Source of the DNA: a virus
IMG/VR virus record: IMGVR_UViG_3300043449_001157
Coordinates: 1 to 29,317 of that record
DNA length: 29,317 nt
Reading direction: 5' to 3' (one strand)
Shown here piece by piece: positions 10,970-29,061 of the stretch (its first letter is position 1; each line of letters starts with the position of its first letter). Under the pieces are notes generated by a model. The model did no database searches. It was not told the origin of the DNA and saw nothing but the letters and a program-made list of their open reading frames with translations. A program made the position numbers and the translations under genes.

Positions 10970-11406
10970 GCTACGAATTCTCTTTAGTTCCGTTTGGACA
11001 GATCAGTTATGTAGTCCCGGCGCTACTTGCTAATCTGGAGAAGTCGCAGTTCTGGACTAAGGGCAGGGCTAACGTAGACGATATCGTACGGTTTATACTG
11101 ACGGGACAGATGAACCTCTGGGTACTGTTTGATACGGAGTCCTCTATGGTAGAAGGGCACGTAATTACGGAAATCAAAGAGTACCCGCAATGCAAGATGT
11201 TAGTAGTGCAGTACTGCGCTGCAGAGCCCCACTTACTTGATCAAGTTGGGGACAAGGTATTCGGGATTCTCGAACAATTTGGAGAAGCCTGCGGATGTAA
11301 AGGGATCGAGTTTTTCGGACGCCCCGGTTGGGGCCCCCACGTTAAACAGCGTGGGTATGTTACTCGAACCGTAGTCTATGAAAAGCATTTTAAGGAATCA
11401 CTATGA
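10966..11406 (+). CDS. GNAT acetyltransferase-like virion or accessory protein
   Basis: A 146-residue protein that starts in an ATGA overlap with the preceding gene and ends in another ATGA overlap. The pattern WVLFDTES...GHVITEIKEYPQCKMLVVQY, a central helix, then GIEFFGRPGWGPHVKQRGY and a final V-YEKHF resembles the core strand-helix-strand layout of GNAT N-acetyltransferases. Proteins of this type are often encoded among ejection proteins in phages with short tails. The typical acetyl-CoA loop (R/Q-x-x-G-x-G/A) is not clear, so catalytic activity is uncertain and it may be a structural relative. No membrane segment is visible. Confidence 0.55.
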   Translation: MSYEFSLVPFGQISYVVPALLANLEKSQFWTKGRANVDDIVRFILTGQMNLWVLFDTESSMVEGHVITEIKEYPQCKMLVVQYCAAEPHLLDQVGDKVFGILEQFGEACGCKGIEFFGRPGWGPHVKQRGYVTRTVVYEKHFKESL

Positions 11407-12317
11407 GTAGCGGCGGCGGCGGATCATCGGCACCTACCCAGCAAACCGTATACCAAACCAGTCTTCCGGAATACGCAAAGCCGTATCTAGAAAAGCTGTT
11501 AGGTAGCGCGGAGGAACTCACTACAGCGGATGTCTATAGGCCCTATACCGGGCAGCAGATCGCTGGATTGAACCCGCTTCAACAGCAGGCCATGATGAAT
11601 CTCCAGCAGTTTCAACCTGCTGCGCAGATCGGTCAGGGGACTCAGCTTGCTCAGATGGCGGGGCTTGGTTCCATTGGTGCAGGACAGCAATATGCACAGA
11701 CGGCGACGGATCCGAGGGCGCTCCAAGCTTATATGTCCCCGTATATGCAGAACGTCGTGGACATGCAGAAGGCTGGGGCGATTCAGGACTACGCGAAGTC
11801 TATCCCCGGTATGAAGGCGCAAGCCTCGACCGTAGGTGGGTTGGGCGGCTCTCGTTCTTCTATTCTGGAAGCCGAAGCGCGTAAGGGCCTGATGGGTCAG
11901 CTGGGCTCGATCCAGACTCAAGGTTTGCAGAATGCCTTCCAGAATGCGCAGCAGGCGCAGCAGTTTGGCGCTGGGCTCGGTATGCAGGGTTACGGTCAGG
12001 CGCTGGGCGCGGCGGGTACCCTTGGGCAGCTTGGTCAGACTGCATATGGTCAGGCGACCGGTATCACCGAGGCTCAGATGCGTGCGGGTGAATCGGCTCG
12101 GCAGCTTGAACAGCAGGGGCTCGACAAGCAATACCAAGACTACATTGCCGCGATGCGTCAGCCGTATCAGCAGCTGTCGTTTATGTCGGACATTCTTCGC
12201 GGTGCCCCGCTCGGCTCCACGACACAGACCATGTATAGCCAAGCTCCTGCAAGTCAGCTCGGTCAGTATGGCGGGTTGATTGGTGGACTGGGTAGCCTGT
12301 TCATGGCAGGGAGATAA
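11403..12317 (+). CDS. Putative internal virion (ejection) protein, Gln/Gly-rich
   Basis: A 304-residue protein beginning in an ATGA overlap with the acetyltransferase-like gene. The start is flexible (SSGGGGSSAP), followed by QTSLPEYAKPYLEKLL and YTGQQIAGLNPLQQQAM. The body is rich in Gln, Ala and Gly with long helices. The C-terminus is hydrophobic and Gly-rich (GQYGGLIGGLGSLFMAG). This composition and gene position fit the middle-sized ejected proteins of phages with short tails, which help form a channel across the cell envelope. It has no enzyme motif. Confidence 0.6.
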   Translation: MSSGGGGSSAPTQQTVYQTSLPEYAKPYLEKLLGSAEELTTADVYRPYTGQQIAGLNPLQQQAMMNLQQFQPAAQIGQGTQLAQMAGLGSIGAGQQYAQTATDPRALQAYMSPYMQNVVDMQKAGAIQDYAKSIPGMKAQASTVGGLGGSRSSILEAEARKGLMGQLGSIQTQGLQNAFQNAQQAQQFGAGLGMQGYGQALGAAGTLGQLGQTAYGQATGITEAQMRAGESARQLEQQGLDKQYQDYIAAMRQPYQQLSFMSDILRGAPLGSTTQTMYSQAPASQLGQYGGLIGGLGSLFMAGR

Positions 12318-12319
12318 CG

Positions 12320-13990
12320 ATGCCTATTCAGATCAGCCCGCAGGGGCTTCAGTTGCAACAGCAAGCTATGGGCATGCCGCGTGATCAAATGCAGGCACTA
12401 CTGAACCAGCAGATCGGATTGATCCCGCTGCCGGAGCTGCTTGCGATCAAGAGCGCCGTGGACCGTGCGCAGCTTAGAAGCGCCCCACCGCAGGCCCAGC
12501 CTGAGCAGACGACTGTTGCACAGGACTTGATGATTCAGAAAGGCACGCAAGATCGGATGCAGGGCGGGGTCGCGACGCTCCCGGTAGCTAACGTGGGCAA
12601 TGAAGCTGCCTATGCAGGCGGTGGGATTGTGGCGTTTGCTGAAGGTGGGACTCCTTACGGACGAGCGGTCGAGCGGTTTGGACAGGGTATTGCAAATTTT
12701 GCTACAAGTTCTCCAAAAGGAATGTACAGCGACCCACGAGCTAAACGACGAATGCTAGAGGAAGAAGCCCTTAAGGTTCTTAATATTGATAAACGCGGCT
12801 CATTACTTGGCGGCTTCATGGATCAATCTGATGAGGAGCGTCAATTCGCGCAGCAAAAAGTTGAACAGATTCGTAATATGCCAGAGGACCAACTCCTCGC
12901 TTTAATAGCCGAAGGACAGGCCGCATCTCAACCTGCCTCTAGTGCAGGTTCAGAACAAGGTGCCCCGCAGTATGGTCTGGGCGCTGTAGGAAAGCGGCAA
13001 TTTGGCCCCTTCAGTCGGCCTACTCCGCAGATTAGGCAATTTGGGCAAGCGGAAGAAGGTGCTTCTGCCCGCGCCGCTGCTCCTGCTCTTAGTATACCGG
13101 AGCTGCTCAAATCGCCTGCCCCCACTGAGTCGGACTTTGGTATTGGTGACCTACAAAAACGCGCAAATAAGGACGAAAAAGCGCGAATGAAAGAAATTCA
13201 AGAAGCCCGTGGCGAAGATGTGCTTGCTAAGCAGGAGGGCGAGCTCAAGGGCGAGCGTGAGAAGCGCACAGGTAAGGCTGCCCAGACTAGGGACATGTGG
13301 CTCGCGCTTTCTCAAGGCTTCTTCGATATGGCTGCATCGGGTAAGCCGACATTCACGGGCGCTCTTGCTGCAGGCGCACAGCGTGGATTTGATGCGTATC
13401 GTCAAGCCCTTGATAAGCGCGATGCTCTTAAAGAGAAGTATGACGACAAGCTAGCACAAATTGCTCTTGCCAAACAGGCTCAGGCGGAAGGAGACTATCG
13501 TTATGCAGCGTCACAGCTTCGTGATGACGAGAAGGAGCTTAATGCTGCACAGAGAGCGTTCAAAACAGCAGATCTGAATTTCCGGCAGTTTGAGATAGGG
13601 CAAACTAACGATAGTATTCAGCAGCTTCGTACCCTCGCCGCACAAAGTAGAGAGAATGAACGGGATCGTCGAACTCAACTTGAGGTTGCGAACATCGGGC
13701 TTGAACGCGCTAGGGCATCTGCCGAAGATCGTGGGGCACTGACTGACTATCAAAGAGCAAATCTTCTAATGAAACTTGATGAACTTCCAGAAGTACAACA
13801 AGCAGACGAAGCGGCTGAAAAAGAAATTGCTGCAAAAGGCAGTCGAGTCCTGAATAGCCCGGCGGGGCAGGCCGCTCTTGCACAACGGAAAAAGGAGATT
13901 CGTGCAGAAGCGGCAAAAAAACTGGGCATAAGGGGGCAAGGGTATAATCCCATATATAGCGCCGCAGATACGATTCTCGGGAGACCGTAA
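12320..13990 (+). CDS. Putative internal virion protein with central AGGG motif and long coiled coil
   Basis: A 556-residue protein, two bases after the previous gene. The N-terminus is Gln/Pro-rich (LQLQQQAMGMPRDQMQALL). Residues ~75-112 contain GVATLPVANVGN and AYAGGGIVAFAEGGTPYG, close in form to motifs in the proteins at 7702 and 8741. A Pro/Ala-rich linker follows at about residues 195-260. Residues ~280-500 are highly charged and helical, with Ala/Lys/Glu-rich stretches suggesting a coiled coil. There is no catalytic motif. It ends in a TAATG overlap with the giant gene. The order 304, 556 and 1887 residues resembles three-protein ejection sets such as T7 gp14, gp15 and gp16, though sequence similarity is not evident by eye. 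Confidence 0.6.
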   Translation: MPIQISPQGLQLQQQAMGMPRDQMQALLNQQIGLIPLPELLAIKSAVDRAQLRSAPPQAQPEQTTVAQDLMIQKGTQDRMQGGVATLPVANVGNEAAYAGGGIVAFAEGGTPYGRAVERFGQGIANFATSSPKGMYSDPRAKRRMLEEEALKVLNIDKRGSLLGGFMDQSDEERQFAQQKVEQIRNMPEDQLLALIAEGQAASQPASSAGSEQGAPQYGLGAVGKRQFGPFSRPTPQIRQFGQAEEGASARAAAPALSIPELLKSPAPTESDFGIGDLQKRANKDEKARMKEIQEARGEDVLAKQEGELKGEREKRTGKAAQTRDMWLALSQGFFDMAASGKPTFTGALAAGAQRGFDAYRQALDKRDALKEKYDDKLAQIALAKQAQAEGDYRYAASQLRDDEKELNAAQRAFKTADLNFRQFEIGQTNDSIQQLRTLAAQSRENERDRRTQLEVANIGLERARASAEDRGALTDYQRANLLMKLDELPEVQQADEAAEKEIAAKGSRVLNSPAGQAALAQRKKEIRAEAAKKLGIRGQGYNPIYSAADTILGRP

Positions 13991-16900
13991 TGGCCTCTGC
14001 TGAAAAATACGCTCGATGGATCGTAGCAAATGAAGATAAACGTGGTACTCCTGAATTCGATACTGTAGCTAAAGCATATAGGTTAGCTAGGCAAGAAGAA
14101 TCTGCGGAGCTCGAAGGCCCCTCCAGTGGAGAAATGCTGGCGCAGCTAAAACCAGATTACACCTTTGGCGAAGCCATCTCCAAGGGCTTCACTCGTGGCA
14201 AAAAGCAACTGTCGTCTGCACTGGGCGACGTGCTGCCTGCCATGGCTGCGAGAGGGCTTGGGTTTGACGAGTACGCACAGGAGCAGATGGAAGAAGCTGC
14301 CCAGACCCAGCAGGAAATTGCACGGGAATACGCTCCGCAAGTGCAGAGTTACAAGGATGTGGCTGGCCCTCGCGATGCCCTGATGTACGCAGCGGAGACC
14401 ATATCCGAACAGGTCCCGAACATCCTGACTTCGCTAGTCCCCGGTGTTGGTACTGGGGCCCTCATGGCAAGAACCGCTGCTTCCGCCGCTACCAAGGCCG
14501 CTGCACAAAACGCTGCTGTCTTCTTGGGTTCCTACGCCCAAAGTGCGCCCGAAGTCTTCCAGAACATTTACCAAGAAACGGGCGAAATGGCCCCCGGTGC
14601 CTCGTTGCTTTTCGGTGCAGCAGCAGGTGCATTGGACTCGGTGCTGCCAGCCAAGCTGGCTAAGGCTCTGACGGGTCCGGTCAAAGCAGGGGTAGTCGAG
14701 AAGCTTCTTGAAGGATCCGGCATGGAGCGCGGGCTGCTTCGGTCGGTCACAGCCAACACGCTTGAAAGCATGGGGGTCGAAGGCGTAACGGAAGGTGCGC
14801 AGGAAGCCATCAGTATCGCTGCAGAACGCTTCATCAACGACAATCCGGAAGTGTTTGGCAACAAGGAATGGGACCGGATTTTCGAGTCTGCCATCCGTGG
14901 CGCGATTGCCGGTGGTCCGTTCGGTGCCATCGAAGGTGCAGTGGATACCTCTCGGGAAAGCGCACAGCGTAGGCAGGCGGAAGAAGCCCAGCGCGTGCAG
15001 GAAGAAGAACGGGCTCAGGTACAGGCTCAGCAGGCTGCGGATGCCGAGATCGGCCAGACCCTTGATGAGTTCCGGGCAAGGAATACCGAACCCCAGCTGC
15101 TGTTGCCGGGGATCGAGCCCGAGCCTTATATCTCTACGCTCGTTCCCACAGAAATTGATTCGCGCACGAAGGAACAGAAGAAGGCCGCTGCAGTCGCTGA
15201 AAAAGCAATCAGCAAGGAGGATGCGAAGCAGGCCGACAAGCAAACCGAACTGTTTGCCCCCAGAGCTTCTTGGGAAGCAGAAGCCAAGCTGACGCCGTTC
15301 GCCCAGAAGATGGCAGAGCGCAATGCCAAGCGGGTCGAGTTTCTAGCCAAGGAAGAAGCGAAGCAGGTCAAGCTTGCAGAGCAGGCCAAAACTAAGCAAG
15401 AACGCGAAGCTGCCAAACAGAAAGCAATTGAGCTGAAGGCTGAACGAGTTCGGTTGTCCAAGCAGATCAAGGAACAGCCCGAACTGCCGTTTGGAGAGCC
15501 TGCGCCGCTTCCCTCGGAAGTACCCCCCACGGAACAAGGGGATACCTTTGACTTGTTTGCAGCTAGGCCCACCCCTGCGGCGACCACGGAAGCGATTCCG
15601 GAACCGACCGTGCGCAAGAAGCCGGAGAAGTTTACTACCATTGACGCGCTGCCCTCTGTGCTACCGGAGGATCCGAAACTAATTAGCACTGCGTTTGGGC
15701 TTACGGCGAAAGCGCCTATCCTGAAGCAATTAGTAGGTAAAGACCTTACCAATCCAGAAGTTGTGGCGGATCTCGCTGATATTGTTGTTCCTCAGTTTAT
15801 AGAAGCACAGCGGAAAAAAGCCCCAAATGCCCCATCAATCGGACGATTCGAAAGCTTCCTCGAACGGCTCAAACCCGCTCAACCTGCAGCGCCCGTCGCT
15901 ACAGAAACTCAGCCCGAAGCAGCTAGAACAAGCGATGAAGTGCCTGTACCTGCAGCGGAACCCACGGTCCAAGGTACTCCAGCAACTGGAGGCGAGAGAC
16001 TGGCTGGTCCTAGCGTTCCTGCTCCAGTGCCTCCTGCAGGAGAAGGCGGAGTCGGTGCTGCACTAGAAACCGCTCCCGCTCCCGCTGCGGAAGTCCAGCC
16101 GCCGGTCAAGGGTAAGATCAAGAAGGCTGCTAAGCCCAAAGCAGCATCCGTGCCGCCTGCGCCTGTTGTCGAAACTCAAGCTGCTACACCGAAAGCGGCT
16201 CCGACTGATGAAGAGCGCCGTGCGGGGCTTGAGGCGCGCCGTTCGGAATTGATGAAGAAGGCAAGCGCGGCTAACCTCAGAGAAAAATCGCCAATCAGTG
16301 ATGACGCATATGAAGCGATAAAAAATAACTTAAAGCGGTACAACTTTGAGCGGGCGGAAAAGCTGCTTAAGGGGGCAACACCAATTCGGGATGAAGGAAC
16401 ATTCCGTGGTCCCAAGTACAAAGGCGCATCGTTTGACGATGATACTCGCCGCTTGGTCGAACAGGGTAACGTAAAGGAAGCTGTCGGGCGCATTGCACAA
16501 CGAAGCAGCCCCGCAGTCCGGAATGTCCTGCGCAAGGTTCAGTCGCTTAATCTCAGGCCCAAGGTCGAGATCCGCAAGGCTGACATGCCGGGATCCGGTG
16601 CCTACGACCCGCGTACGAATACGATTGTGCTGGATCCAGACAGTGGGCTCAACGACCACATCTTCGTGCATGAGCTGATCCATTCCGCGTTGGTCAATGT
16701 GCTTGGCAACCCAGAGCTGAAGATCACCAAGGACTTCACGAAGTTCTTCACGCAGATCAAGAACCAGATGGGCGATGCCTACGGCGGGCAGGACCTGCAG
16801 GAATTTGCTTCTGAACTGGTGGGCAATCCCGAATTTCAGGCGTTGCTCAAGACCATCAAGGCTCCGCGTAGTGAGTCCTTCTTCAAGAAGATCATGCGGG

Positions 16901-19653
16901 CTATCGCGGATTTCTTTGGTTTCCCCCCAAATGCCTACGATGCTGGGCTTAAGTTTGTGTCTGATGCGCTCGATATCTCCGAAGGTGTTGAGGTTCTTCC
17001 GTGGGACAAGATGTTCTACGGTCCCGGCAACTTCGAAGCTGTTGCAGAAATTGGCAGGTCTATGCCAAAGGCGACGAAGAACGCAATTGAGGAAGCCAAG
17101 AACGTCTACTCCAACCTGACTGACGGGGGTGGGTTCAAGGAAACCGCATTTGGCCTTCTTCGGCTGGACAACATGAACGACATGTTCCGCACGGAGCTGC
17201 CGGGTATCCAGAAGCTGCTGAACGCAATCGAGAGGCGTACTGGTGACGAAGCACGTCGGATCAATGATGTGAACGCCAAGGCCAAGAAGATGCGCAAGAC
17301 CTTGAACCGGTACCCGAACGAAGTTGCCCGCATGGACCAGATGGCGATTGATGCGCGTCTTGCCCAAGTGGACATCCTTGACCCGAAGTTCACGCCCACA
17401 CCCAAGAACCGTGCAGAATACGACCGGCTCAAGCAGGTGTTTAACGCGCTACCGTCTGATGTGCAGGATGTGTACCGTGTGGCACGCAAGGATTTCGATG
17501 CTCAGCTGACAGAGTACCGGCAGATCCTGATGCGGGCAGCGGAAGACGCTTCCCCGTCCCTCGCCAAGCGCCTGCAGACTCAGTTTGCAGTGGATGGAAT
17601 GCTGGTTGGGTATGTACCGTTCGCCCGGTATGGCGATTTCTGGGTTGAGTACACGGATCCGGCCACCAAGGAACGGGCAGCGGCAGCATTCGAGAGCTTC
17701 AGGGAGCGCGAACAGTTCATCAACCGCGAGCTGGCCCCCAAGAAGATCGACTTCAGGAAGTACGAGCAGCTGGAAAATGCTTTGTTCGACCCGTCCAACG
17801 TGCTGCCTACTTCGACCATTGGGCAAATCATGTCCAACCTGCAGAAGCAAGGTGCCGAAAAGGGCCTTCCCCCGGATGCCATTCGTGCCCAGATGGACAG
17901 CGTGTACCAGATTTACCTGAGCATGTTCCCCGGCCAATCGATCATGAAGCAGTTCATCAAGGCGAAGAACACGCCCGGAATGAGCAAGGACCTGATTCGC
18001 GGGTATAGTGACTTGATGGTCCGTTGGGCCCAGAAGATGCCCAATGCTATTTATCTGCCGCAGATCAACGAAGCTCTCAACGAGATCAAGGCGCAGAAGG
18101 AAGGCCAGAACGAAACGGTCAAGGCTGCGGCACGTAACATATTGAACCAGTCGGCCTTTATGCGCGACCCCACGTTCAACAACTTGGTAAACGCGGCAAC
18201 GTCGTTCAGCTACTTTGAGTACATTGCGGGTAATATCTCCTCGGCAATCGTCAACCTGACTTCGCTGCCCCTGCTGGTATGGCCGATCCTGTCCCGATTC
18301 GGGTTTGGTAAGGCTTCAGATGCCATGTTGTCTGCAGGTCGTGTAGCGATGAACGATTGGAGCAAGGGCAAGTACGCCGCCCTGTACAAGACCCTGATGG
18401 ATCACGGGCAGCTCGAACACACCATGGCTCGGGAGATCTTGAATAGCCGCAGGAAGAAGTCGTCTGACTATACCAGTGTTTGGGCGCGGGTCATGGATGG
18501 GCTTTCCGTGCCGTTTGCCGCAACTGAAAAGTACAACCGCTCCGTGACTGCTATTGCAGCCTATGAATTGGCGCGGGGCAAGAATATGTCGGAGCAGGAA
18601 GCGATTGATTTTGCATTGAAGACCACCAAGGACGCGCACACCTCGGGCATCGCTGCCACGGGTCCCCGCTGGATGCAGAACGCGGTCGGACGTATTTTCT
18701 TCACCTTCAAGTCTTTCGTATGGAACAGCGCCTATGTTGCAGCGCGAGCGTTCCATCAGTGGGCAAAGGGGCAAACCCCGGAAGTCCGCGCCGCTGCGCG
18801 CAGGCAGGTGCTTGGCATGTTTGGCATGGCCTCTGTCCTTACTGGTGTGAAGGGAATGCCGTTCTACGGAGCCTTTAGTGTGCTTGGCACGATGATGCAG
18901 GCTATGCTGGGCGATGACGACGAGCCGTTCGACTTCCACGAAGAAGCCAGAAACTTCTTTGGCGAGCTCGGATACAAGGGCGGGCTTAACTACTTGCTGA
19001 ACTTGGAAATATCCAACCGTGCAGGTATTGCAACAGATTTGGTGTTCCGTGACGACCCGCGTGGGGTTGAGCAAAATGGATATGTGCTGTCTGCCATGAA
19101 GAATGCGTTCGGTCCTGCAGGATCGTATCTGGTCGGAGCTGAACGGGGCATCAGGCAGATGGCCGAAGGGAATGTCTGGCGGGGTGTCGAATCCCTCTTG
19201 CCAAGCTGGACGCGGAACGGGCTCAAGGGCGCTAGGTACATGCAGGAAGGCGCGTTGACCCTCAAGGGGGATCCGGTGGATGAGGACATCAGTGCATGGA
19301 ATTCGCTCAACCAGATCATCGGGTTCTCACCTGCAGACTTGTCGTCTAGGTACGAAAAGATTTCTGCGGCAAAGGCTTACGAGAAGAAGATCAACGATAG
19401 GCGTCAACGGCTCATAGACCTGTACGACATGGCGCGGACTTCGGGGGATACGGAGTTGTTGGCAGAAGCCAAGGCACGCATCAACGAGTACCGGCTTGCC
19501 CGGATCGGTAAGCCCATAACGCAGGACACCCTCGAACGCTCGTTCAGGGCCCGCAAAGCGGCTGAGAAGGAAATGCTCTACGGCGTGCGCTTCGACAAGA
19601 ACCTGCGGTCGCAGATCGAAGAGAAGTTTTTCTCGGAAGAGGATGAGGAATAA
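13990..19653 (+). CDS. Giant virion protein with embedded HEXXH metallopeptidase-like domain (genome ejection protein candidate)
   Basis: A 1887-residue protein and the last late gene. Regions in order: an N-terminal helical segment (AEKYARWIVANEDKRGTPEFD); an Ala/Gly-rich hydrophobic part at about 140-230; charged coiled-coil stretches at about 321-360 and 429-500; Pro/Ala-rich linkers at about 500-545 and 630-740; a metallopeptidase-like part at about 850-960; long helical regions; hydrophobic segments near 1408-1440 and 1604-1640; and a charged C-terminus (EEKFFSEEDEE). The zinc motif is HELIH at residues 894-898, preceded by YDPRTNTIVLDPDSG. A possible third ligand is Glu938 or Glu942 (EFASEL). 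Large polyvalent proteins of phages often carry such domains. A role in envelope or host-protein cleavage during DNA ejection is inference. No lytic transglycosylase motif, as in T7 gp16, is evident. Confidence 0.7.
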   Translation: MASAEKYARWIVANEDKRGTPEFDTVAKAYRLARQEESAELEGPSSGEMLAQLKPDYTFGEAISKGFTRGKKQLSSALGDVLPAMAARGLGFDEYAQEQMEEAAQTQQEIAREYAPQVQSYKDVAGPRDALMYAAETISEQVPNILTSLVPGVGTGALMARTAASAATKAAAQNAAVFLGSYAQSAPEVFQNIYQETGEMAPGASLLFGAAAGALDSVLPAKLAKALTGPVKAGVVEKLLEGSGMERGLLRSVTANTLESMGVEGVTEGAQEAISIAAERFINDNPEVFGNKEWDRIFESAIRGAIAGGPFGAIEGAVDTSRESAQRRQAEEAQRVQEEERAQVQAQQAADAEIGQTLDEFRARNTEPQLLLPGIEPEPYISTLVPTEIDSRTKEQKKAAAVAEKAISKEDAKQADKQTELFAPRASWEAEAKLTPFAQKMAERNAKRVEFLAKEEAKQVKLAEQAKTKQEREAAKQKAIELKAERVRLSKQIKEQPELPFGEPAPLPSEVPPTEQGDTFDLFAARPTPAATTEAIPEPTVRKKPEKFTTIDALPSVLPEDPKLISTAFGLTAKAPILKQLVGKDLTNPEVVADLADIVVPQFIEAQRKKAPNAPSIGRFESFLERLKPAQPAAPVATETQPEAARTSDEVPVPAAEPTVQGTPATGGERLAGPSVPAPVPPAGEGGVGAALETAPAPAAEVQPPVKGKIKKAAKPKAASVPPAPVVETQAATPKAAPTDEERRAGLEARRSELMKKASAANLREKSPISDDAYEAIKNNLKRYNFERAEKLLKGATPIRDEGTFRGPKYKGASFDDDTRRLVEQGNVKEAVGRIAQRSSPAVRNVLRKVQSLNLRPKVEIRKADMPGSGAYDPRTNTIVLDPDSGLNDHIFVHELIHSALVNVLGNPELKITKDFTKFFTQIKNQMGDAYGGQDLQEFASELVGNPEFQALLKTIKAPRSESFFKKIMRAIADFFGFPPNAYDAGLKFVSDALDISEGVEVLPWDKMFYGPGNFEAVAEIGRSMPKATKNAIEEAKNVYSNLTDGGGFKETAFGLLRLDNMNDMFRTELPGIQKLLNAIERRTGDEARRINDVNAKAKKMRKTLNRYPNEVARMDQMAIDARLAQVDILDPKFTPTPKNRAEYDRLKQVFNALPSDVQDVYRVARKDFDAQLTEYRQILMRAAEDASPSLAKRLQTQFAVDGMLVGYVPFARYGDFWVEYTDPATKERAAAAFESFREREQFINRELAPKKIDFRKYEQLENALFDPSNVLPTSTIGQIMSNLQKQGAEKGLPPDAIRAQMDSVYQIYLSMFPGQSIMKQFIKAKNTPGMSKDLIRGYSDLMVRWAQKMPNAIYLPQINEALNEIKAQKEGQNETVKAAARNILNQSAFMRDPTFNNLVNAATSFSYFEYIAGNISSAIVNLTSLPLLVWPILSRFGFGKASDAMLSAGRVAMNDWSKGKYAALYKTLMDHGQLEHTMAREILNSRRKKSSDYTSVWARVMDGLSVPFAATEKYNRSVTAIAAYELARGKNMSEQEAIDFALKTTKDAHTSGIAATGPRWMQNAVGRIFFTFKSFVWNSAYVAARAFHQWAKGQTPEVRAAARRQVLGMFGMASVLTGVKGMPFYGAFSVLGTMMQAMLGDDDEPFDFHEEARNFFGELGYKGGLNYLLNLEISNRAGIATDLVFRDDPRGVEQNGYVLSAMKNAFGPAGSYLVGAERGIRQMAEGNVWRGVESLLPSWTRNGLKGARYMQEGALTLKGDPVDEDISAWNSLNQIIGFSPADLSSRYEKISAAKAYEKKINDRRQRLIDLYDMARTSGDTELLAEAKARINEYRLARIGKPITQDTLERSFRARKAAEKEMLYGVRFDKNLRSQIEEKFFSEEDEE

Positions 19654-19678: not shown

Positions 19679-19920
19679 TAAAACTTCTCAGGTGGAGAAG
19701 AAGAGTGCGGGGGCATTGTACCATCCTTCCGCCAAGCCCGCACCCCGTACACGCCGTTTTCGACCACCTGTTTGCAAGTGCAGTCGAGTTTCAGCCTGCG
19801 ACACTCCCGCATGATAAACCGTTGCACCGCAATACGGTCTACGCAGGGGACGAAAAACGAGGATCCGGGCTGGAACTTACTCCACTGGATTAGCAGGGGC
19901 TGATTGAAGATCTTTAGCAA
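19678..19920 (-). CDS. Small conserved phage hypothetical protein, TTG start
   Basis: An 80-residue protein, the last gene of the leftward block. The start is TTG at 19920, supported by a strong Shine-Dalgarno (AAGGAGGAGG) six bases upstream, inside the end of the primase-helicase gene; the two genes overlap by 44 bases. The pattern FQPGSSFFVPCVD, then a basic helix, then VVENGVYGVRAWR resembles a small conserved protein I recall in other phages, without known function. It has one Cys pair (CTC) and several Arg/Lys. A DNA- or protein-binding accessory of the primase-helicase is possible from its position. Confidence 0.65.
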   Translation of the reverse strand: MLKIFNQPLLIQWSKFQPGSSFFVPCVDRIAVQRFIMRECRRLKLDCTCKQVVENGVYGVRAWRKDGTMPPHSSSPPEKF

Positions 19921-22738
19921 ACAGAGCCTCCTCCTTGAAGAATTCCAGCTTTGTGGTGTCGAAGAACAGGGCGTTGACTGCCGTCGCGGTGCCCGTCGAG
20001 GTACCGGCTAACATGCGCTTCTTGTCCCTGCGGAGGAACCCGCCCGACTTCTTGTAGGGTATCAGGGTCTCCTCGAAGTTCAGCTTCATCTTTTGGCAGG
20101 CATCCCGGTAACTGCGGGACACAACGTACAACATCTTGGTATCTGGCTCGTACCGGGCCACCAGCTGCCCACGGGGCTCCTTGATCGGGCCATAATCGAG
20201 ACCGGTGCGCTTGTCCTTGTTGCCGTTGATGACCAGCATATCGCTGTAATGGGCTGCAAGGAACGCACCCAAGAAGTCTTCTTGGTCGAACAGGTACTCC
20301 CGGTTCTTCTCGCGGGTGTCGTTGATCAGCTTGATCCCATAGTCGAACACCGGCTTGACCGGGATATCGTGCAAGCCAAGATGCTTGGCAATCGTCCCGC
20401 CAGCGATGGCTACGGACACCATCAGAGCCCAGTACCGCTCCGAGTTGCGGATCCCGGCAGCTTGGTCCACTTTCAGCTGGATTTCAGTTAGTTTTTGTTT
20501 GACGGTCGGCAACTGCGAGATAATGGCCCGTGCAAACGGCTCAATGGCGTGCCCGTAGTTCTCCGTCAGCGGCCCGAAGTGGCCCCTAGCCCACGTAGCA
20601 TTGTCATACGGATCCGGCTTGATTTCGACTTCGATGATGCGCTTGAGCTCACCGTCAGGGAATCCCTTAATCGATAGCAAGGCGTCGGTGATCCGCTGGT
20701 TGGATGACGTGATCAACCCGGTCTGCCACTTGGTCGAGTTCGTACGTTCGGCGTTGTCGTGCTGGCGCAGGCGGTTCTTGGCCCGTCCGGAGGTCACGTC
20801 GTAGACCTGCTGGGACAGCTGATCAGCGCCCATGTTCGTGATCTCGTCCATGGTAACGGCCAGATTCTGCATCACGCCAAGGCGCTGCATCCGGGAGTTG
20901 TACGTGTCCTTCGGTGCCAGCAGAAGTTCCTTGGGCTTGCCGTAGATGCTGTTGATTGCCTGCAGGATGGTCGTCTTGCCGGTACCAGACTCGCGGCTCA
21001 CGAGGTTCAGTACGAACCCGTCCAGCGGGGTGAAGCGCATAAGCAGCGTGCCAAAGCCCATGAAGAAAGCGAAGGCCCGACACTCCATGCCCGGACGCCC
21101 ATAGGCATTGATGATGTTCTTCCATACATGGAAGTCGCCCTTGGGCTTAAACAGGGGGATATTGGGCAGGGTTGGCACGGACGGCGGACTATATACCGTC
21201 TCGGTTGCGCGGATCTCCCGGTCGCCAATGATCAAGCCAGACTCGTCATCCAGCCAACCAAACTGCCTGTGTGCTTTCTCTGCGTGTGCTGCTAGCTGCA
21301 ATTCGTCCACCGATCTACTGATGTAGAACATAAGGGCCTCTTGTTTCTTCACGCCGTATATCGATACGCCGATCTCCGAAACGGAAGCGATGAATTTTTC
21401 CTTCGACATCGAGTGACCCAACGGCATGATCACTTCCCGCACGCCGTCCTTCGGCAGGTGCAGCCGAACCAGAATCGTCTCCCCGATATCGGGATCCTGC
21501 AGGCGTTTGACAACGTACAGATCGTACGGGTAGACCAGTTCTTCGATGTCGTTGTCGTCCTTGTCCTTCGTACGCACAAAGATCCCGCCAGCCTTGCCTC
21601 GGAAGAACGGGAACGGGTACTTGGGGATTACGTAGGTTGTGGGCTCCTTGGTCTTCTCCTCGGGGGCAACAACCACATTGTCGGCTTCGGTCGCTTCGAT
21701 GATCTCCCGACCCAACTGGATCGGGGACGTGATCTTGAGCGGGCATCCCTCACACCCTGCCGGGTTCAGCTTGCGGAAGGTTTCGCAGGTGTACGGGCCC
21801 TTGGTCTCGCTGGCCTTGCGGTCAGTATCGTTCGCGTTGTACTCAGGGTGCTTCTTGGATATGACATGGATGGCCTTGTCCCGATCCGCGCACTGCTCGG
21901 CAATGCTCAAGCCCGCCCGCCACAGGGGTTCAGGGATTGTCGCCTGATTTTCGTAGATGTTTACCAGCTGCGCGCAGCCTGTGCCCTCAATCGACTTGAC
22001 CAGAATCTTCTTGAAGCTGGACTGGCTGCTGCCCATCAGCGCCAGCGTAGTTGGGTCCATGGCACGGCGACTGGTCGGCTTGTTCAGTGCGTTCAGGACA
22101 TCCACATCGGGGGTAAGCAACCGCTCAATGTCGCTGCGCTCGATCTCGGGCGCGACATGCAAAATCTCGACTAGGATCGGGTTTGTTGGATCCTTGACGT
22201 GGTACGTACCGGGGATTCGCAGGACTCGGGCAGCTTCGCCGGTCACTGCAGGATCTACTTTGAACCCGTGCTTGGCACACAAGAACTTCAGCTGCTCGGC
22301 GTAGTTGCGCCATTCTAGCCGGGGCATGGCCTCCTTCATAACCCAGTATACGTGCGCTCCAAGCCCAGACTTGACGATGGTAGGGCGCGGCAAGCCAGCC
22401 TTCTTGCAGAAATCCTTGAGCGCAACCATGCCATCGCCCAGATCCGTGTAGGGCTTACCGGGGCCGCAATCGAGGTCCATATAGAAAGACTTGAGCGCAA
22501 CGGCATTGGTCGCAATGCGCCCCTCGTCGGGGTTACCGTACTTCGCCATGGCAAAGAAGGCGTTGTATTCGTCTTCGACAAGCAGGTTGGCGTTCGAGTC
22601 GATCTCGTCAATCGAGGTAACGAACCGCTGCCGGACATCGCGATTTTCGCCTACGTCCTTTATGCCGAACGTGCAGTAGCACTCCCCGTCTTGCAACGGG
22701 GGAAGTACCAGCGCAAGAAATTCTTTTCTTGAAACCAT
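19877..22738 (-). CDS. Primase-helicase (primase-like N-terminus, DUF927-like ATPase C-terminus)
   Basis: A 953-residue product from the ATG at 22738, which has a GAGGA box; an upstream in-frame TTG was not chosen. The N-terminal part has primase-like motifs of the archaeo-eukaryotic type: YMDLDCG (acidic pair Asp88/Asp90) and KSGLGAHVYW at about 123-132, then RVLRIPGTYHVKDP. A Cys cluster follows (Cys318, Cys329, Cys332; CEGCPLK), a likely metal site. The C-terminal half resembles DUF927/SF3-like helicases: Walker A SGTGKTT (584-590) and Walker B VTMDEI, then a GLITSSNQ sensor-like motif. It likely unwinds DNA and makes primers at phage replication forks. The HTH gene lies upstream and the small 80-residue gene overlaps its end. 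Confidence 0.85.
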   Translation of the reverse strand: MVSRKEFLALVLPPLQDGECYCTFGIKDVGENRDVRQRFVTSIDEIDSNANLLVEDEYNAFFAMAKYGNPDEGRIATNAVALKSFYMDLDCGPGKPYTDLGDGMVALKDFCKKAGLPRPTIVKSGLGAHVYWVMKEAMPRLEWRNYAEQLKFLCAKHGFKVDPAVTGEAARVLRIPGTYHVKDPTNPILVEILHVAPEIERSDIERLLTPDVDVLNALNKPTSRRAMDPTTLALMGSSQSSFKKILVKSIEGTGCAQLVNIYENQATIPEPLWRAGLSIAEQCADRDKAIHVISKKHPEYNANDTDRKASETKGPYTCETFRKLNPAGCEGCPLKITSPIQLGREIIEATEADNVVVAPEEKTKEPTTYVIPKYPFPFFRGKAGGIFVRTKDKDDNDIEELVYPYDLYVVKRLQDPDIGETILVRLHLPKDGVREVIMPLGHSMSKEKFIASVSEIGVSIYGVKKQEALMFYISRSVDELQLAAHAEKAHRQFGWLDDESGLIIGDREIRATETVYSPPSVPTLPNIPLFKPKGDFHVWKNIINAYGRPGMECRAFAFFMGFGTLLMRFTPLDGFVLNLVSRESGTGKTTILQAINSIYGKPKELLLAPKDTYNSRMQRLGVMQNLAVTMDEITNMGADQLSQQVYDVTSGRAKNRLRQHDNAERTNSTKWQTGLITSSNQRITDALLSIKGFPDGELKRIIEVEIKPDPYDNATWARGHFGPLTENYGHAIEPFARAIISQLPTVKQKLTEIQLKVDQAAGIRNSERYWALMVSVAIAGGTIAKHLGLHDIPVKPVFDYGIKLINDTREKNREYLFDQEDFLGAFLAAHYSDMLVINGNKDKRTGLDYGPIKEPRGQLVARYEPDTKMLYVVSRSYRDACQKMKLNFEETLIPYKKSGGFLRRDKKRMLAGTSTGTATAVNALFFDTTKLEFFKEEALFAKDLQSAPANPVE
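19927..19936 (-). promoter_or_regulatory. Strong ribosome binding site for a TTG start
   Basis: The minus-strand sequence AAGGAGGAGG sits six bases before the TTG at 19920 and within the coding sequence of the primase-helicase. It decides the start of the 80-residue protein, which has no nearby ATG, and implies translation coupled to the end of the upstream gene. Confidence 0.75.
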
Positions 22739-22826
22739 AGCCGTCCTCGGTACCGTCAATAAATGGGAAGGGCAGGAACGTGACGGCGGCGTTCTTTTCG
22801 GTAGCTAGCCTAGCCCACCCAATTCT

Positions 22827-24398: not shown

Positions 24399-24427
24399 AC
24401 TCTAACCCTTATAAATTGTGAAGTCAA
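24399..24427 (-). promoter_or_regulatory. Sigma70-like promoter candidate before the coiled-coil gene
   Basis: On the minus strand TTGACT (24422-24427) and TAGAGT (24399-24404) are separated by 17 bases, with five and four matches to consensus. The -35 lies in TTTGACTTC, the same nine bases as in the promoter candidate before the SNF2 helicase gene. It would drive the coiled-coil, four-Cys, HTH and primase-helicase genes. Confidence 0.5.
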
Positions 24428-25971
24428 ACATCACTCAACAGGTTCTTGTACAGGTCCACGAGCTTTTCGTGGATGTCAACCTTTTCCGAAAGCATCTTGT
24501 AAATCCGTCGCTCGACCGGGCTTCCTTCAAGATGCACCACAGTGCAGGGGTTACGTTGTCCCGCACGATGCACACGAGCATTAGCCTGCAAGTAGGTTTC
24601 GATAGACGTTATCGGACCCCACCAGACAACCACGTTGGCCGCGTGCAGAGTTACGCCGTGCGCTGCAGCTTGAGGCTGGATGACCAGCACTTGTGGGGTC
24701 TTGTCGTTCTGGAACTTGGCAAAGATGTCCGTACGCTTCGTGGCCGATATACCTCCATGAATCACTTCGCACGAAACATTGTTGGCCGTAAGTTCCTCAG
24801 ACAGTATATCAATCGCGTGCCTGAACGGAGCAAACACAATGACCTTGTGGCTGGCCTCCTCAATAACTTCCAGCAATGCTGCGATGCGGTTCTTGGCGTC
24901 AAACGCCACCACTTCTCCACTATCCGAATAGACTGCGCCACACGACAGCTGCAACAGCTTGTTCAGGTTGGCAGCGGCATTGACAGTCGTGATCTCCTCG
25001 TTCGCTGCGTACACCATCATGTTCTTGCGTAGCTTCTCGTAATACTTATCCTGCTGTGCAGTCAACGGGACGTGCCTTGACGTGTACGTCATCTCCGGCA
25101 GGTCTAGGCATTCTTCCTTTGTAAACCGGATCGCTGGCTGCAATACCCTGTGTACGATCTGTTGGGCCTCGGACTTCGGGATCCACTTGAACGTCGTGAT
25201 CTTCCGCATAACTTGGTCGCGGAACGCACCGAAGAACTTGGGCACTCCGCCCGGATTGATGATCTTGGCGAGCCCGTACGCATCTGTTGGGACCTGCGCC
25301 GCTGGCGTACCTGTTAGCATCCACACCCACATCTCGGGGCGTATGATGGAGTTGAACGTCCGCCATCGCTTGGTCGATACGTTCTTGTACGAGTTGGCCT
25401 CATCAACCACGATCAAGTCGAACCCGCCATTCTTCACATCGTCCTTAACAATCTCCAGCCCATCGAAGTTGCAGATGACGAACTCAGCGTCACTCAGCAC
25501 GGCCTTGCGGCGCTTGTCCTTCGAGTAGCTATGCGCGATTGCGCAGGTACGATGAACTGCAAACTTGAACAAATCACCTTCCCATGCCGACGACATGATG
25601 GACAGTGGGCATAGCACCAGCACGCGCTTGATCAGCCCGACCTTCATCAAGTAATCCGCAGCCCATATCACTGAGGAGGTCTTGCCTGTTCCTTGCTCAT
25701 TGAAGCAGAACGCTCGGCGGTGCAACGTCAAGAAGGATGCCGTGGTCTTCTGGTGTTCGAACGGTCGGTACAATCCCGGCCAGTCGTACTTGCCTATGAT
25801 CGGGGACGGTACGTTCTTGACCCCCATGTTCGACAGGATCTGAGCTTCTTCCACACCCCACCTGACCAGCACTTCGTTTGACCCCAACGGTTTCGAGTTG
25901 GGCACGACAGTCAGGATGCGGTTGGGCTCCCGTACTTTCAGCAGCAATGCTTTATTTTCTATGATCTGCAC
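24424..25971 (-). CDS. SNF2-type DEAD-like helicase/ATPase
   Basis: A 515-residue protein with a GTG start supported by AGGAAG six bases upstream. Motifs of SF2/SNF2 enzymes are in order: YRPFEHQ (Q-like), Walker A EQGTGKTS at 92-99, LVLCPLSIMSSAW (Ia), VVDEANSYKN with DEAN at 190-193, LTGTP at 219-223, an IVFAPFRHAID segment starting the second RecA domain, and QANARVHRAGQ at 462-472 (motif VI). The length is that of the minimal phage form, with no extra DNA-targeting domain. Such phage enzymes are thought to remodel DNA or protein-DNA complexes in replication or recombination. The HNH and Cas4-like genes lie upstream. A promoter candidate and two hairpins lie in the 120-base leader. Confidence 0.9.
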   Translation of the reverse strand: MQIIENKALLLKVREPNRILTVVPNSKPLGSNEVLVRWGVEEAQILSNMGVKNVPSPIIGKYDWPGLYRPFEHQKTTASFLTLHRRAFCFNEQGTGKTSSVIWAADYLMKVGLIKRVLVLCPLSIMSSAWEGDLFKFAVHRTCAIAHSYSKDKRRKAVLSDAEFVICNFDGLEIVKDDVKNGGFDLIVVDEANSYKNVSTKRWRTFNSIIRPEMWVWMLTGTPAAQVPTDAYGLAKIINPGGVPKFFGAFRDQVMRKITTFKWIPKSEAQQIVHRVLQPAIRFTKEECLDLPEMTYTSRHVPLTAQQDKYYEKLRKNMMVYAANEEITTVNAAANLNKLLQLSCGAVYSDSGEVVAFDAKNRIAALLEVIEEASHKVIVFAPFRHAIDILSEELTANNVSCEVIHGGISATKRTDIFAKFQNDKTPQVLVIQPQAAAHGVTLHAANVVVWWGPITSIETYLQANARVHRAGQRNPCTVVHLEGSPVERRIYKMLSEKVDIHEKLVDLYKNLLSDV

Positions 25972-26359: not shown

Positions 26360-27028
26360 TTAGTAGGATCCTTTTCCATTGTGGGTGCAGTCCTTGACTG
26401 GGCACCATTTGCTACAGGTGAAGTTCGGGCGCGGGTTCCACACGTCGGCTTTGTAGGATTCTTCCAGCCGTGCCGTATCCGTGATCCACCGTTGCCAGTA
26501 CACAGGCTCTTGCGCGACATCAAACGCATCGCGGACAAACTCGTTAGCAACAACGAACAGCAGCCCCGCCTTCACCCGCTTGACCTCGGGGAAGTGTTTG
26601 AACAGGGCCAGTGACAGAATCTCCAGCTGCTTGGTGTCTGCATACTTGCTGGACTTGCCGGTCTTGTAGTCAACCATGCGAGCCTCGTCGCCCTGCAGAA
26701 TGATCAAGTCAGCGATACCCCTCCACCAAACATCCTTGGAGAAGAAGTCACAGGGCTCAAGATTCTTGGTGAGCCCCATCTTGTGTTCACACAGAAACGT
26801 ACCCGGATACTTGCGCAGTGCGTCAAGCATCTCCTGAACGTATGAAAACTTCTCTGGCAGTGGCGTGCCAGATTGGATAAAGTCCTCGGCTGCTTTGTGC
26901 ATTTCCAGCCCGTAGGCCAGATGCTCGCTCGGCGGCTCCTTGACATCCTTCTTGACCTTGAGCCGGTAATACTTATGCGGGCATTGCTTGTACAAGTCTA
27001 GCGCCGAATACGACCACGAGTATTTCAC
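26360..27028 (-). CDS. Cas4/RecB-like PD-(D/E)XK nuclease with Fe-S type cysteines
   Basis: A 222-residue protein from a GTG at 27028 with GGAGG four bases upstream. The nuclease motifs are visible: His44 (GLEMHKA), Asp107 (RGIADLI), Asp120-x-Lys122 (MVDYKTGKS) and Gln134 (KQLEILSLALF), the order expected of PDDEXK_1/RecB family exonucleases. Cysteines at 16 (YKQCPHKYY) and 205, 209 and 214 (CSKWCPVKDC) match the four-cysteine Fe-S site of Cas4 and AddB proteins. It probably processes DNA ends in phage recombination or replication. No cas1, cas2 or CRISPR array is present, so an adaptation role here is not supported. It is next to the HNH and SNF2 genes. Confidence 0.85.
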   Translation of the reverse strand: MKYSWSYSALDLYKQCPHKYYRLKVKKDVKEPPSEHLAYGLEMHKAAEDFIQSGTPLPEKFSYVQEMLDALRKYPGTFLCEHKMGLTKNLEPCDFFSKDVWWRGIADLIILQGDEARMVDYKTGKSSKYADTKQLEILSLALFKHFPEVKRVKAGLLFVVANEFVRDAFDVAQEPVYWQRWITDTARLEESYKADVWNPRPNFTCSKWCPVKDCTHNGKGSY

Positions 27029-28239: not shown

Positions 28240-28430
28240 GGCCTATCAAACCCCTTGAACAGCGGCCACCCATAGTTACGTGGGGAAGTTACCATCTTGT
28301 TCTCGTCGCAGACAGGGCAGACATCTTCCCACAAAGTGAATCCTCGAAGCCCGAGATCCTGCCACTCCATCGGATCCAGCGCATCCTTCGCGCACTCAGC
28401 GCACACCTGATCAGGATATTTTTGCTTCAT
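28236..28430 (-). CDS. Small zinc-ribbon-like protein
   Basis: A 64-residue product from the ATG at 28430 that overlaps the end of thyX by 20 bases; a longer open frame upstream lies inside thyX and was not chosen. Two CxxC pairs, Cys10/Cys13 (CAEC) and Cys38/Cys41 (CPVC), form a probable zinc site. The C-terminus (GWPLFKGF) is aromatic. The stop overlaps the next start (ATGA). Proteins of this type are common in early phage operons, and most have no assigned role. Confidence 0.7.
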   Translation of the reverse strand: MKQKYPDQVCAECAKDALDPMEWQDLGLRGFTLWEDVCPVCDENKMVTSPRNYGWPLFKGFDRP

Positions 28431-29061
28431 CTTTCGCACTCCAAGCTTCCCAAATCGTCGGCACCTGATTCGCCAGCTCGTGGCTGATCTGTTGTGCAAT
28501 CAGGCGGTGTTCTTTTTGCGTTGCATCATCCGACCTCAATGCACAGTAATGCAGCCAGCTGCGCAGCGTGCCGCTCATGTACATCCTGCTCGGCGTCAAG
28601 CCTTCAGGCAGCAGGGCCCGTGCTTGTTCCTTGGCAATCCCGTTAGTCAGTGCCCAACGATATATGTCGGTCGCCAGCGTACGCAGCACCCTCTGCTGGC
28701 TTTCCCATTGGACTGAGAGGCGCATATCCTCAACTTCGTAGCTACTCTGCCTGTTGTTCGGATCCTGCATCCGACACTCCCGAAGAGGGACGTAGGGTAA
28801 CTTGCTGACATCTTCATACCTCTGGCTGAATTCCTGAAACGAGAATGACCGATGCCGCAGGATCTGCCGACCAATATCCCGTGTCGTGTTGATCTCGAAG
28901 CACGCAGACGCCATCTCGAACGGCGACCAATGCTCGTTGCGGATCATATACTTCAGCAGCCCCACCACGTTCTCGTTGTCCTGATTAGCAGGATTACTGA
29001 CGCGGGCCATGTACCCGATAAGCTTCTCAGCCTCGGGCGTGATCCAGATTAGTTTGACCAT
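28411..29061 (-). CDS. thyX: Flavin-dependent thymidylate synthase ThyX
   Basis: A 216-residue protein. The ThyX signature RHRxxSxxxxSxRY is complete: Arg69-His70-Arg71, Ser74, Ser79, Arg81-Tyr82 (RHRSFSFQEFSQRY). HWSPFEM (44-50) and the C-terminal TLRSWLHYCALRS...TQKEHR match other family blocks. The enzyme methylates dUMP to dTMP using methylene-tetrahydrofolate, FAD and NADPH, and so supplies thymidylate for phage DNA synthesis. The length is normal. It follows the 26-residue membrane peptide by three bases and heads the chain of overlapping small genes. No thyA is present in the window. Confidence 0.95.
   Translation of the reverse strand: MVKLIWITPEAEKLIGYMARVSNPANQDNENVVGLLKYMIRNEHWSPFEMASACFEINTTRDIGRQILRHRSFSFQEFSQRYEDVSKLPYVPLRECRMQDPNNRQSSYEVEDMRLSVQWESQQRVLRTLATDIYRWALTNGIAKEQARALLPEGLTPSRMYMSGTLRSWLHYCALRSDDATQKEHRLIAQQISHELANQVPTIWEAWSAKDEAKIS

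What the first reader, a model, noticed from the sequence alone, without database searches (positions are those of the whole stretch)
13990..19653. Giant ejection-type protein with an embedded HELIH metallopeptidase motif
Seen: a single 1887-residue late protein with hydrophobic segments, coiled coils and a HELIH motif at residues 894-898, plus a plausible Glu ligand about 40 residues on (938 or 942). Known: T7 gp16 carries a lytic transglycosylase; large phage polyvalent proteins can carry peptidase domains. Inference: this phage may use a co-injected protease, not a muralytic domain, to cross or remodel the envelope, or to disable a host protein on entry.
Basis: partly seen in the sequence, partly recalled or inferred. 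Interest (0 to 1): 0.6.

Follow-up and report, generated by a model that had tools for sequence, protein, structure and literature searches.

The report
Zinc protease domain in ejected phage protein
A short-tailed phage carries a giant protein, probably injected into the host with its DNA, that contains a well-preserved zinc protease domain of a kind already known in phage 'polyvalent' proteins, and the same domain turns out to sit in the entry proteins of several other phage families, once apparently mislabelled as a cell-wall-cutting domain.

Summary
ORF 13990-19653 (+) encodes 1887 aa with one HELIH at 894-898; shuffled copies of the protein contain HExxH in 0.26% of cases. Residues ~805-1000 form a zincin-type metallopeptidase. 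In 17 divergent homologues the only invariant residues are H894, E895, H898 and E938, so the third ligand is E938, not E942; Y931 is nearly invariant. AlphaFold models give a three-stranded sheet plus HExxH and Glu helices. The closest solved structures are zincins and phage ejection proteins. Close relatives (36-50% identity) keep H, E, H, Y, E while the two residues inside the motif vary. The rest of the protein is a membrane-type N-terminal module, a linker, LPD39 and the PLxRFG 'tail-700' module. This is a new member of a known kind: zincins are the commonest domain of phage polyvalent proteins, including N4 vRNAP (PMC5512222). The more interesting part is that the same domain lies in phiKMV- and PhiM1-type gp16 homologues. 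PhiM1's was published as 'endolysin/exotransglycosidase-like'. Catalysis, ejection and substrate are inferred. Whether it cleaves its own chain after entry or a host protein is unresolved.

The parts
13990..19653 (+). giant polyvalent-type ejection protein, 1887 aa
   Evidence: relatives of similar length and layout L138, L144, L146, L150-L152
14158..14976 (+). N-terminal Gly/Ala-rich, probably membrane-interacting module (res 57-329)
   Evidence: blastp E down to 8e-22 to N-termini of L037, L054, L058, L068, L039, L095, L123; weak PHROG virion-RNAP match 97-479, E 5e-10
14977..16401 (+). poorly conserved charged and Pro/Ala-rich linker (res 330-804)
   Evidence: 12-26% identity to close relatives in 40-residue blocks, lowest of the protein
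16402..16989 (+). zincin-like metallopeptidase domain (res 805-1000)
16669..16683 (+). HELIH, zinc ligands H894 and H898, general base E895
   Evidence: invariant in 17 divergent homologues and in all close relatives
16780..16782 (+). Y931, nearly invariant; same Tyr-x6-Glu spacing as in the solved protease domain matched by the profile
16801..16803 (+). E938, third zinc ligand
   Evidence: invariant; on the second active-site helix of both models
17149..17586 (+). LPD39 (res 1054-1199)
   Evidence: Pfam PF18858, 35 bits against cut-off 27
17608..19602 (+). PLxRFG 'tail-700' helical C-terminal module (res 1207-1871)
   Evidence: NCBIfam NF032893, 430.5 bits, cut-off 100; PHROG 10089
11403..12317 (+). 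putative DNA ejection protein, same cassette
   Evidence: PHROG 4287, E 2.6e-20
12320..13990 (+). 556-aa protein between the two, candidate second ejection protein
   Evidence: position only; no family found at PHROG or NCBIfam thresholds, Pfam P68HR below its cut-off

Best explanation
The ORF encodes the large ejected internal protein of a short-tailed phage. It has a membrane-type N-terminal module, a flexible linker, an intact zincin metallopeptidase (H894, H898 and E938 hold Zn, E895 is the general base, Y931 assists) and a helical LPD39 + PLxRFG C-terminal module. It is packaged in the head with the protease still part of the chain. During infection it passes through the tail with the DNA, refolds in the envelope or cytoplasm, and the protease then makes limited cuts. 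I think the likeliest substrate is the ejected protein itself, at the linkers next to the protease, separating the N-terminal module and any cargo from the C-terminal module. A host envelope or cytoplasmic protein is nearly as likely. Shown: ORF, motif, fold prediction, conservation, homology to proteins found in virions. Inferred: zinc binding, catalysis, ejection of this protein, substrate. The confidence given is for an active zincin in an ejected protein; the self-cleavage step alone I put at about 0.4.
For: Only H894, E895, H898 and E938 are invariant in 17 sequences at 14-47% identity. In close relatives the motif reads HEIIH, HELGH, HETGH, HEAAH, HEGGH, HEMSH or HETIH, while H, E, H, Y931 and E938 are fixed. 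The zincin has low dN/dS (0.06-0.09 for three informative pairs), with dN 2-4 times below that of the C-terminal module. Profile matches: solved phage ejection proteins at E 3e-27, 2e-20 and 6e-16, a zinc protease domain at 2e-4, N4 vRNAP at 2e-3. hhalign gives E 9e-16 to N4-type vRNAP and 4e-15 to phiKMV-type gp16. Structure: domain model pTM 0.77; best match PhiM1 ejection protein 289-515, Z 8.2, 141 aligned, 3.9 A; the other leading rows are nearly all zinc peptidases. In the 781-1887 model, N4 vRNAP 2124-2358 aligns at Z 5.4, 152 aligned, 4.9 A. Homologues found in virions: phi14:2 g065 by MS, PhiM1 gp48 by cryo-EM, N4 vRNAP. For self-processing: 64 of 79 non-redundant relatives have HExxH or HExxxH in the stretch just before the C-terminal module (2.9 expected by shuffling), with many different motif types in the same slot. 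The position is kept while the zincin is exchanged, as expected if it separates cargo from the C-terminal module.
Against: No proteolytic activity is known for any of these phage domains in the papers read. Full-length N4 vRNAP is packaged unprocessed (PMC5512222), and recombinant vRNAP shows no degradation (PMC12633501). PhiM1 gp48 keeps the domain in the chain inside virions. One clade of relatives (PBC5/Rhizobium type) has no HExxH at all in 11 of 15 proteins examined, so the domain is dispensable there. Foldseek gave no significant match at E 0.001. VIA Z values are modest, and the zincin rows other than PhiM1 fell from Z 6-8 in the large model to Z 4-5 in the domain model.
Confidence: 0.72

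Rival explanations
1. The zincin is an effector: after ejection it cuts a specific host protein (envelope, defence or transcription) rather than its own chain.
For: Iyer et al. list this as an alternative. N4 vRNAP and PhiM1 gp48 remain uncut in the virion, so self-cleavage has no direct support. In phiKMV and PhiM1 the lysozyme lies in the neighbouring ejection protein, which leaves the zincin a different job.
Against: No host substrate is known. The conserved slot beside the C-terminal module, filled by many zincin types, suggests a positional role.
Confidence: 0.38
2. The domain is a structural or regulatory module without peptidase activity in the ejectosome; the metal site only stabilises the fold.
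For: N4 C1 is described as part of a CTD that inhibits the polymerase, with no protease activity reported. PhiM1 gp48 uses the region inside a tetrameric assembly.
Against: The general base E895 is as invariant as the ligands, and Y931 is nearly invariant; a purely structural site would not need E895.
Confidence: 0.15
3. HELIH is a chance motif in a helical protein with no zincin domain.
For: Foldseek E-values for the models are not significant by themselves.
Against: Chance 0.26%; the four-residue pattern is invariant; profile E to solved proteins down to 3e-27; zincin structural neighbours.
Confidence: 0.02

Closest known systems
Zincin-like MPTase domain of phage polyvalent proteins (Iyer et al. 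2017, PMC5512222)
   Same: HExxH helix plus Glu helix, three-stranded sheet, embedded in a large multidomain phage protein with LPDs; the authors relate it to the same solved protease as found here
   Different: not assigned here to one of their 12 clades; not covered by a Pfam model above cut-off
N4 virion RNA polymerase gp50, C1 domain 2124-2375 (PDB 9pnr; PMC12633501)
   Same: homologous HExxHA zincin (hhalign E 9e-16; VIA Z 5.4, 152 aligned, 4.9 A)
   Different: the window protein has no RNA polymerase domain, and its C-terminal module shows no detectable relation to N4 C2
PhiM1 tetrameric ejection protein gp48 (PDB 8vb2) and phiKMV gp37
   Same: same zincin (E 6e-16, VIA Z 8.2, 141 aligned, 3.9 A for PhiM1; HEAVHAAT in phiKMV)
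   Different: Autographiviridae gp16 homologues of 1263-1337 aa that did not appear among the relatives found with the C-terminal module; PhiM1's domain was published as endolysin/exotransglycosidase-like
crAss-like phage phi14:2 g065 (virion RNAP-associated protein)
   Same: HEIMH zincin near the N-terminus, found in virions by MS
   Different: separate protein beside a two-barrel RNAP, no PLxRFG module seen
T7 gp16 ejectosome protein
   Same: same place in an ejection cassette; possible weak fold similarity after the zincin (VIA Z 4.6, 229 aligned, 5.6 A)
   Different: T7 gp16 lacks the HExxHA zincin, and the window protein lacks a detectable transglycosylase

Membership tests
zincin-like MPTase of polyvalent proteins | HExxH motif on a helix | tested here: met
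   residues 894-898 on helix 889-905
zincin-like MPTase of polyvalent proteins | conserved Glu on the following active-site helix | tested here: met
   E938 invariant, on helix 936-945
zincin-like MPTase of polyvalent proteins | three-stranded sheet, N-terminal helix, two C-terminal helices | tested here: met
   helix 841-852, strands 858-861, 870-873, 878-881, then both helices (prediction, pLDDT mostly 70-90)
zincin-like MPTase of polyvalent proteins | homology to N4 vRNAP MPTase | tested here: met
   hhalign E 9e-16; VIA Z 5.4, 152 aligned, 4.9 A
zincin-like MPTase of polyvalent proteins | zinc binding and peptidase activity | not testable with these tools
   needs protein
phage polyvalent protein | catalytic domain combined with LPD domains in one long chain | tested here: met
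   zincin plus LPD39 above cut-off plus NF032893
phage polyvalent protein | delivered into the host with the DNA | tested here: inconclusive
   late ejection cassette and homologues in virions only
PLxRFG tail-700 (NF032893) | score above curated cut-off | tested here: met
   430.5 bits against 100
DUF6782 metallopeptidase (PF20573) | score above curated cut-off | tested here: not met
   22.5 bits against 27
N4-type virion RNA polymerase | T7-like RNAP domain before the zincin | tested here: not met
   no RNAP family in Pfam; that stretch is a poorly conserved linker
T7 gp16 family | N-terminal lytic transglycosylase | tested here: not met
   no SLT or lysozyme match in Pfam or NCBIfam
T7 gp16 family | homologous helical core | tested here: inconclusive
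   VIA Z 4.6, 229 aligned, 5.6 A to T7 gp16 516-860; hhalign E 5e-5, probability 67%, to the phiKMV-type C-terminus, reversed controls 0.13-0.26

The most novel reading that the evidence does not exclude
One zincin protease is a shared entry enzyme of several unrelated-looking podovirus ejectosomes (PLxRFG giants, N4 vRNAP, crAss g065, phiKMV- and PhiM1-type gp16). In the last group it sits in a gp16 homologue in which no T7-type transglycosylase is evident, so the published 'exotransglycosidase-like' domain of PhiM1 is really a protease that works during DNA entry.
Probability: 0.5. Interest if true: 0.65.

Novelty: new member of a known kind. Interest (0 to 1): 0.38.

Why it matters
It shows that a protease domain proposed in 2017 from sequence is kept catalytically intact, under strong purifying selection, in ejection proteins across at least four phage groups, and that solved cryo-EM structures already contain it under another label. 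That makes a testable question of what proteolysis does during phage DNA entry. N4 on laboratory E. coli is a ready system.

Tried and rejected
Chance motif: rejected. E942 as ligand: rejected, not conserved beyond the close family. 'N4 vRNAP without its polymerase': the zincin is shared, but the C-terminal module does not match N4 C2 (hhalign E 0.29 with 27 sequences; an earlier E of 0.047 with 3 sequences, vanished), and an N-terminal profile found no N4-type vRNAP among the loci searched. Single-protein scan of viral contigs found no relatives; alignments A2 and A6 were too divergent to scan. tblastn of the N-terminal 380 aa found nothing in the phage records. The first Foldseek search with the 1107-residue model gave no meaningful match. 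Pfam DUF6782 membership: below cut-off. Literature searches for zincins in phiKMV- or PhiM1-type gp16 found none in the held papers, which does not prove absence.

Full report
What is there. ORF 13990-19653 (+) encodes 1887 aa. It ends a gene run that includes 11403-12317, a PHROG 'DNA ejection protein', and 12320-13990, an unassigned 556-aa protein. A convergent block follows on the minus strand: a DUF927 primase-like protein at 19877-22759, a SNF2-type helicase at 24424-25971, a PD-(D/E)XK nuclease at 26360-27028 and a Thy1 at 28411-29061. The window is a 29,317-base virus record. Seventeen IMG/VR loci carry close relatives (36-50% identity over the shared part; two of the contigs had been fetched before as L018 and L019); 15 of them also show the primase-like gene downstream and 14 the helicase.

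Domain layout. Residues 57-329 form an N-terminal Gly/Ala-rich module that recurs in other giants. Residues 330-804 are a poorly conserved linker. Residues 805-1000 are the zincin. LPD39 lies at 1054-1199, and NCBIfam NF032893 'tail-700, PLxRFG' at 1207-1871 with 430.5 bits. By Iyer et al. (PMC5512222) this is a phage-type polyvalent protein.

The zincin. HELIH at 894-898 is unique in the protein and unlikely by chance. tblastn with the region found crAss-like phages, a Cellulophaga crAss-like phage, N4-like vRNAPs, Autographiviridae gp16-type proteins and a Vibrio giant protein, some of them only as weak matches. All the ones examined have HExxH at the aligned place. In alignment A2 (17 sequences) the only invariant columns are H894, E895, H898 and E938; Y931 and L953 are above 90%. 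This settles the third ligand as E938. In the close family the residues inside the motif vary freely while H, E, H, Y and E do not. The 921-960 block is the most conserved 40-residue block of the protein (78% identity to close relatives). Caution: those loci were fetched with patterns at about 915-934, so part of that figure is by construction, but 935-960 lies outside the patterns. dN/dS of the zincin is 0.06-0.09 for three informative pairs, with dN 2-4 times below that of the C-terminal module.

Fold. AlphaFold2 of 781-1887 (mean pLDDT 80) and of 805-1010 (77, pTM 0.77) both give helix, three strands, HExxH helix and a Glu helix with E938. VIA-align ranks zinc peptidases first for the large model (Z 8.0, 150 aligned, 4.4 A for the best) and includes N4 vRNAP 2124-2358 (Z 5.4, 152 aligned, 4.9 A). 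For the domain alone the best match is PhiM1 gp48 289-515 (Z 8.2, 141 aligned, 3.9 A), and nearly all other leading rows are zinc peptidases at Z 3.4-4.9. By sequence profile the domain matches 23sg gp10, 9sfn internal virion protein and 8vb2 PhiM1 gp48 very strongly, then a known zinc protease domain that shares the Tyr-x6-Glu spacing, then N4 vRNAP. Profile-profile E-values are 9e-16 to vRNAP C-termini and 4e-15 to phiKMV-type gp16.

A point for the field. The PhiM1 ejectosome paper assigns gp48 Asp268-Asp528 as 'endolysin/exotransglycosidase-like' and has no 'protease', 'metallo' or HExxH in its main text. The same stretch carries HEAAHA, the YG...EF segment and the zincin fold. phiKMV gp37, whose neighbour gp36 carries the lysozyme, has HEAVHAAT at 423. 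The 2022 review of ejection proteins mentions no protease. I cannot exclude that it is stated in papers that are not held, or in the supplementary files of the 2017 paper.

Distribution. Of 79 non-redundant relatives of the C-terminal module, 64 have an HExxH or HExxxH in the stretch up to 700 residues before it; shuffled sequences give 2.9. The motifs fall into many types (HEAFHSG, HExxHAA, HEAVGHH, HEIIHAL and others), so different zincins occupy one slot. The PBC5/Rhizobium clade lacks it.

How it probably works. Shown: an intact, selected zincin domain in a protein of ejection type. Inferred: zinc binding, activity, packaging and ejection. Relatives are packaged uncut (N4, PhiM1), so action before packaging is unlikely. 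After entry, self-cleavage beside the conserved slot and cleavage of a host protein are both open; I lean slightly to the former because the slot is kept while the zincin type is exchanged.

Novelty. The zincin in giant phage proteins is known; this is a new member. The extension to phiKMV- and PhiM1-type gp16, with the correction of the PhiM1 label, is the part I would pass on.

Noticed in passing
PDB 8vb2 (PhiM1 gp48 268-528): Published as endolysin/exotransglycosidase-like; sequence profile and structural alignment indicate a zincin metallopeptidase domain instead.
   Followed up: partly
L155:1690-1704 (phiKMV gp37 residue 423) and L014-L017, L158, L159: HExxHA zincin in Autographiviridae gp16 homologues; absent in LKA1, SWH-Ab-1 and pphageBV72. 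T7 gp16 has only an unrelated-looking HERLH at 559.
   Followed up: partly
window:17149-19602: LPD39 + tail-700 module may share a core with T7 gp16 (VIA Z 4.6, 229 aligned, 5.6 A; hhalign E 5e-5 to phiKMV-type gp16, reversed controls 0.13-0.26). Lead only.
   Followed up: partly
L044, L105, L115, L052, L110 and allies (PBC5/Rhizobium type): Relatives that keep the C-terminal module but have no HExxH or HExxxH anywhere in the chain examined.
   Followed up: partly
L141, L142, L143, L153, upstream of the zincin: Long extra region between the N-terminus and the zincin; in L141 it contains repeated 'SFPVLKTA'-like units, as if the linker were a cargo slot.
   Followed up: no
L013 (Vibrio phage PG11 vRNAP, residues 2187 and 2424): Two HExxH zincin-like motifs in one N4-type vRNAP; hhalign also finds a second zincin-like stretch in the vRNAP profile, E 3e-7.
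   Followed up: no
L007:5227-10638 (crAss-like cr4_1): 18 in-frame TAG codons in the zincin-bearing giant gene, consistent with TAG reassignment.
   Followed up: no
window:19877-22759 (-): 960-aa DUF927 primase/helicase-like protein with a matching PHROG of unknown function (E 7e-102), convergent with the giant gene in this and 15 of 17 related loci.
   Followed up: no
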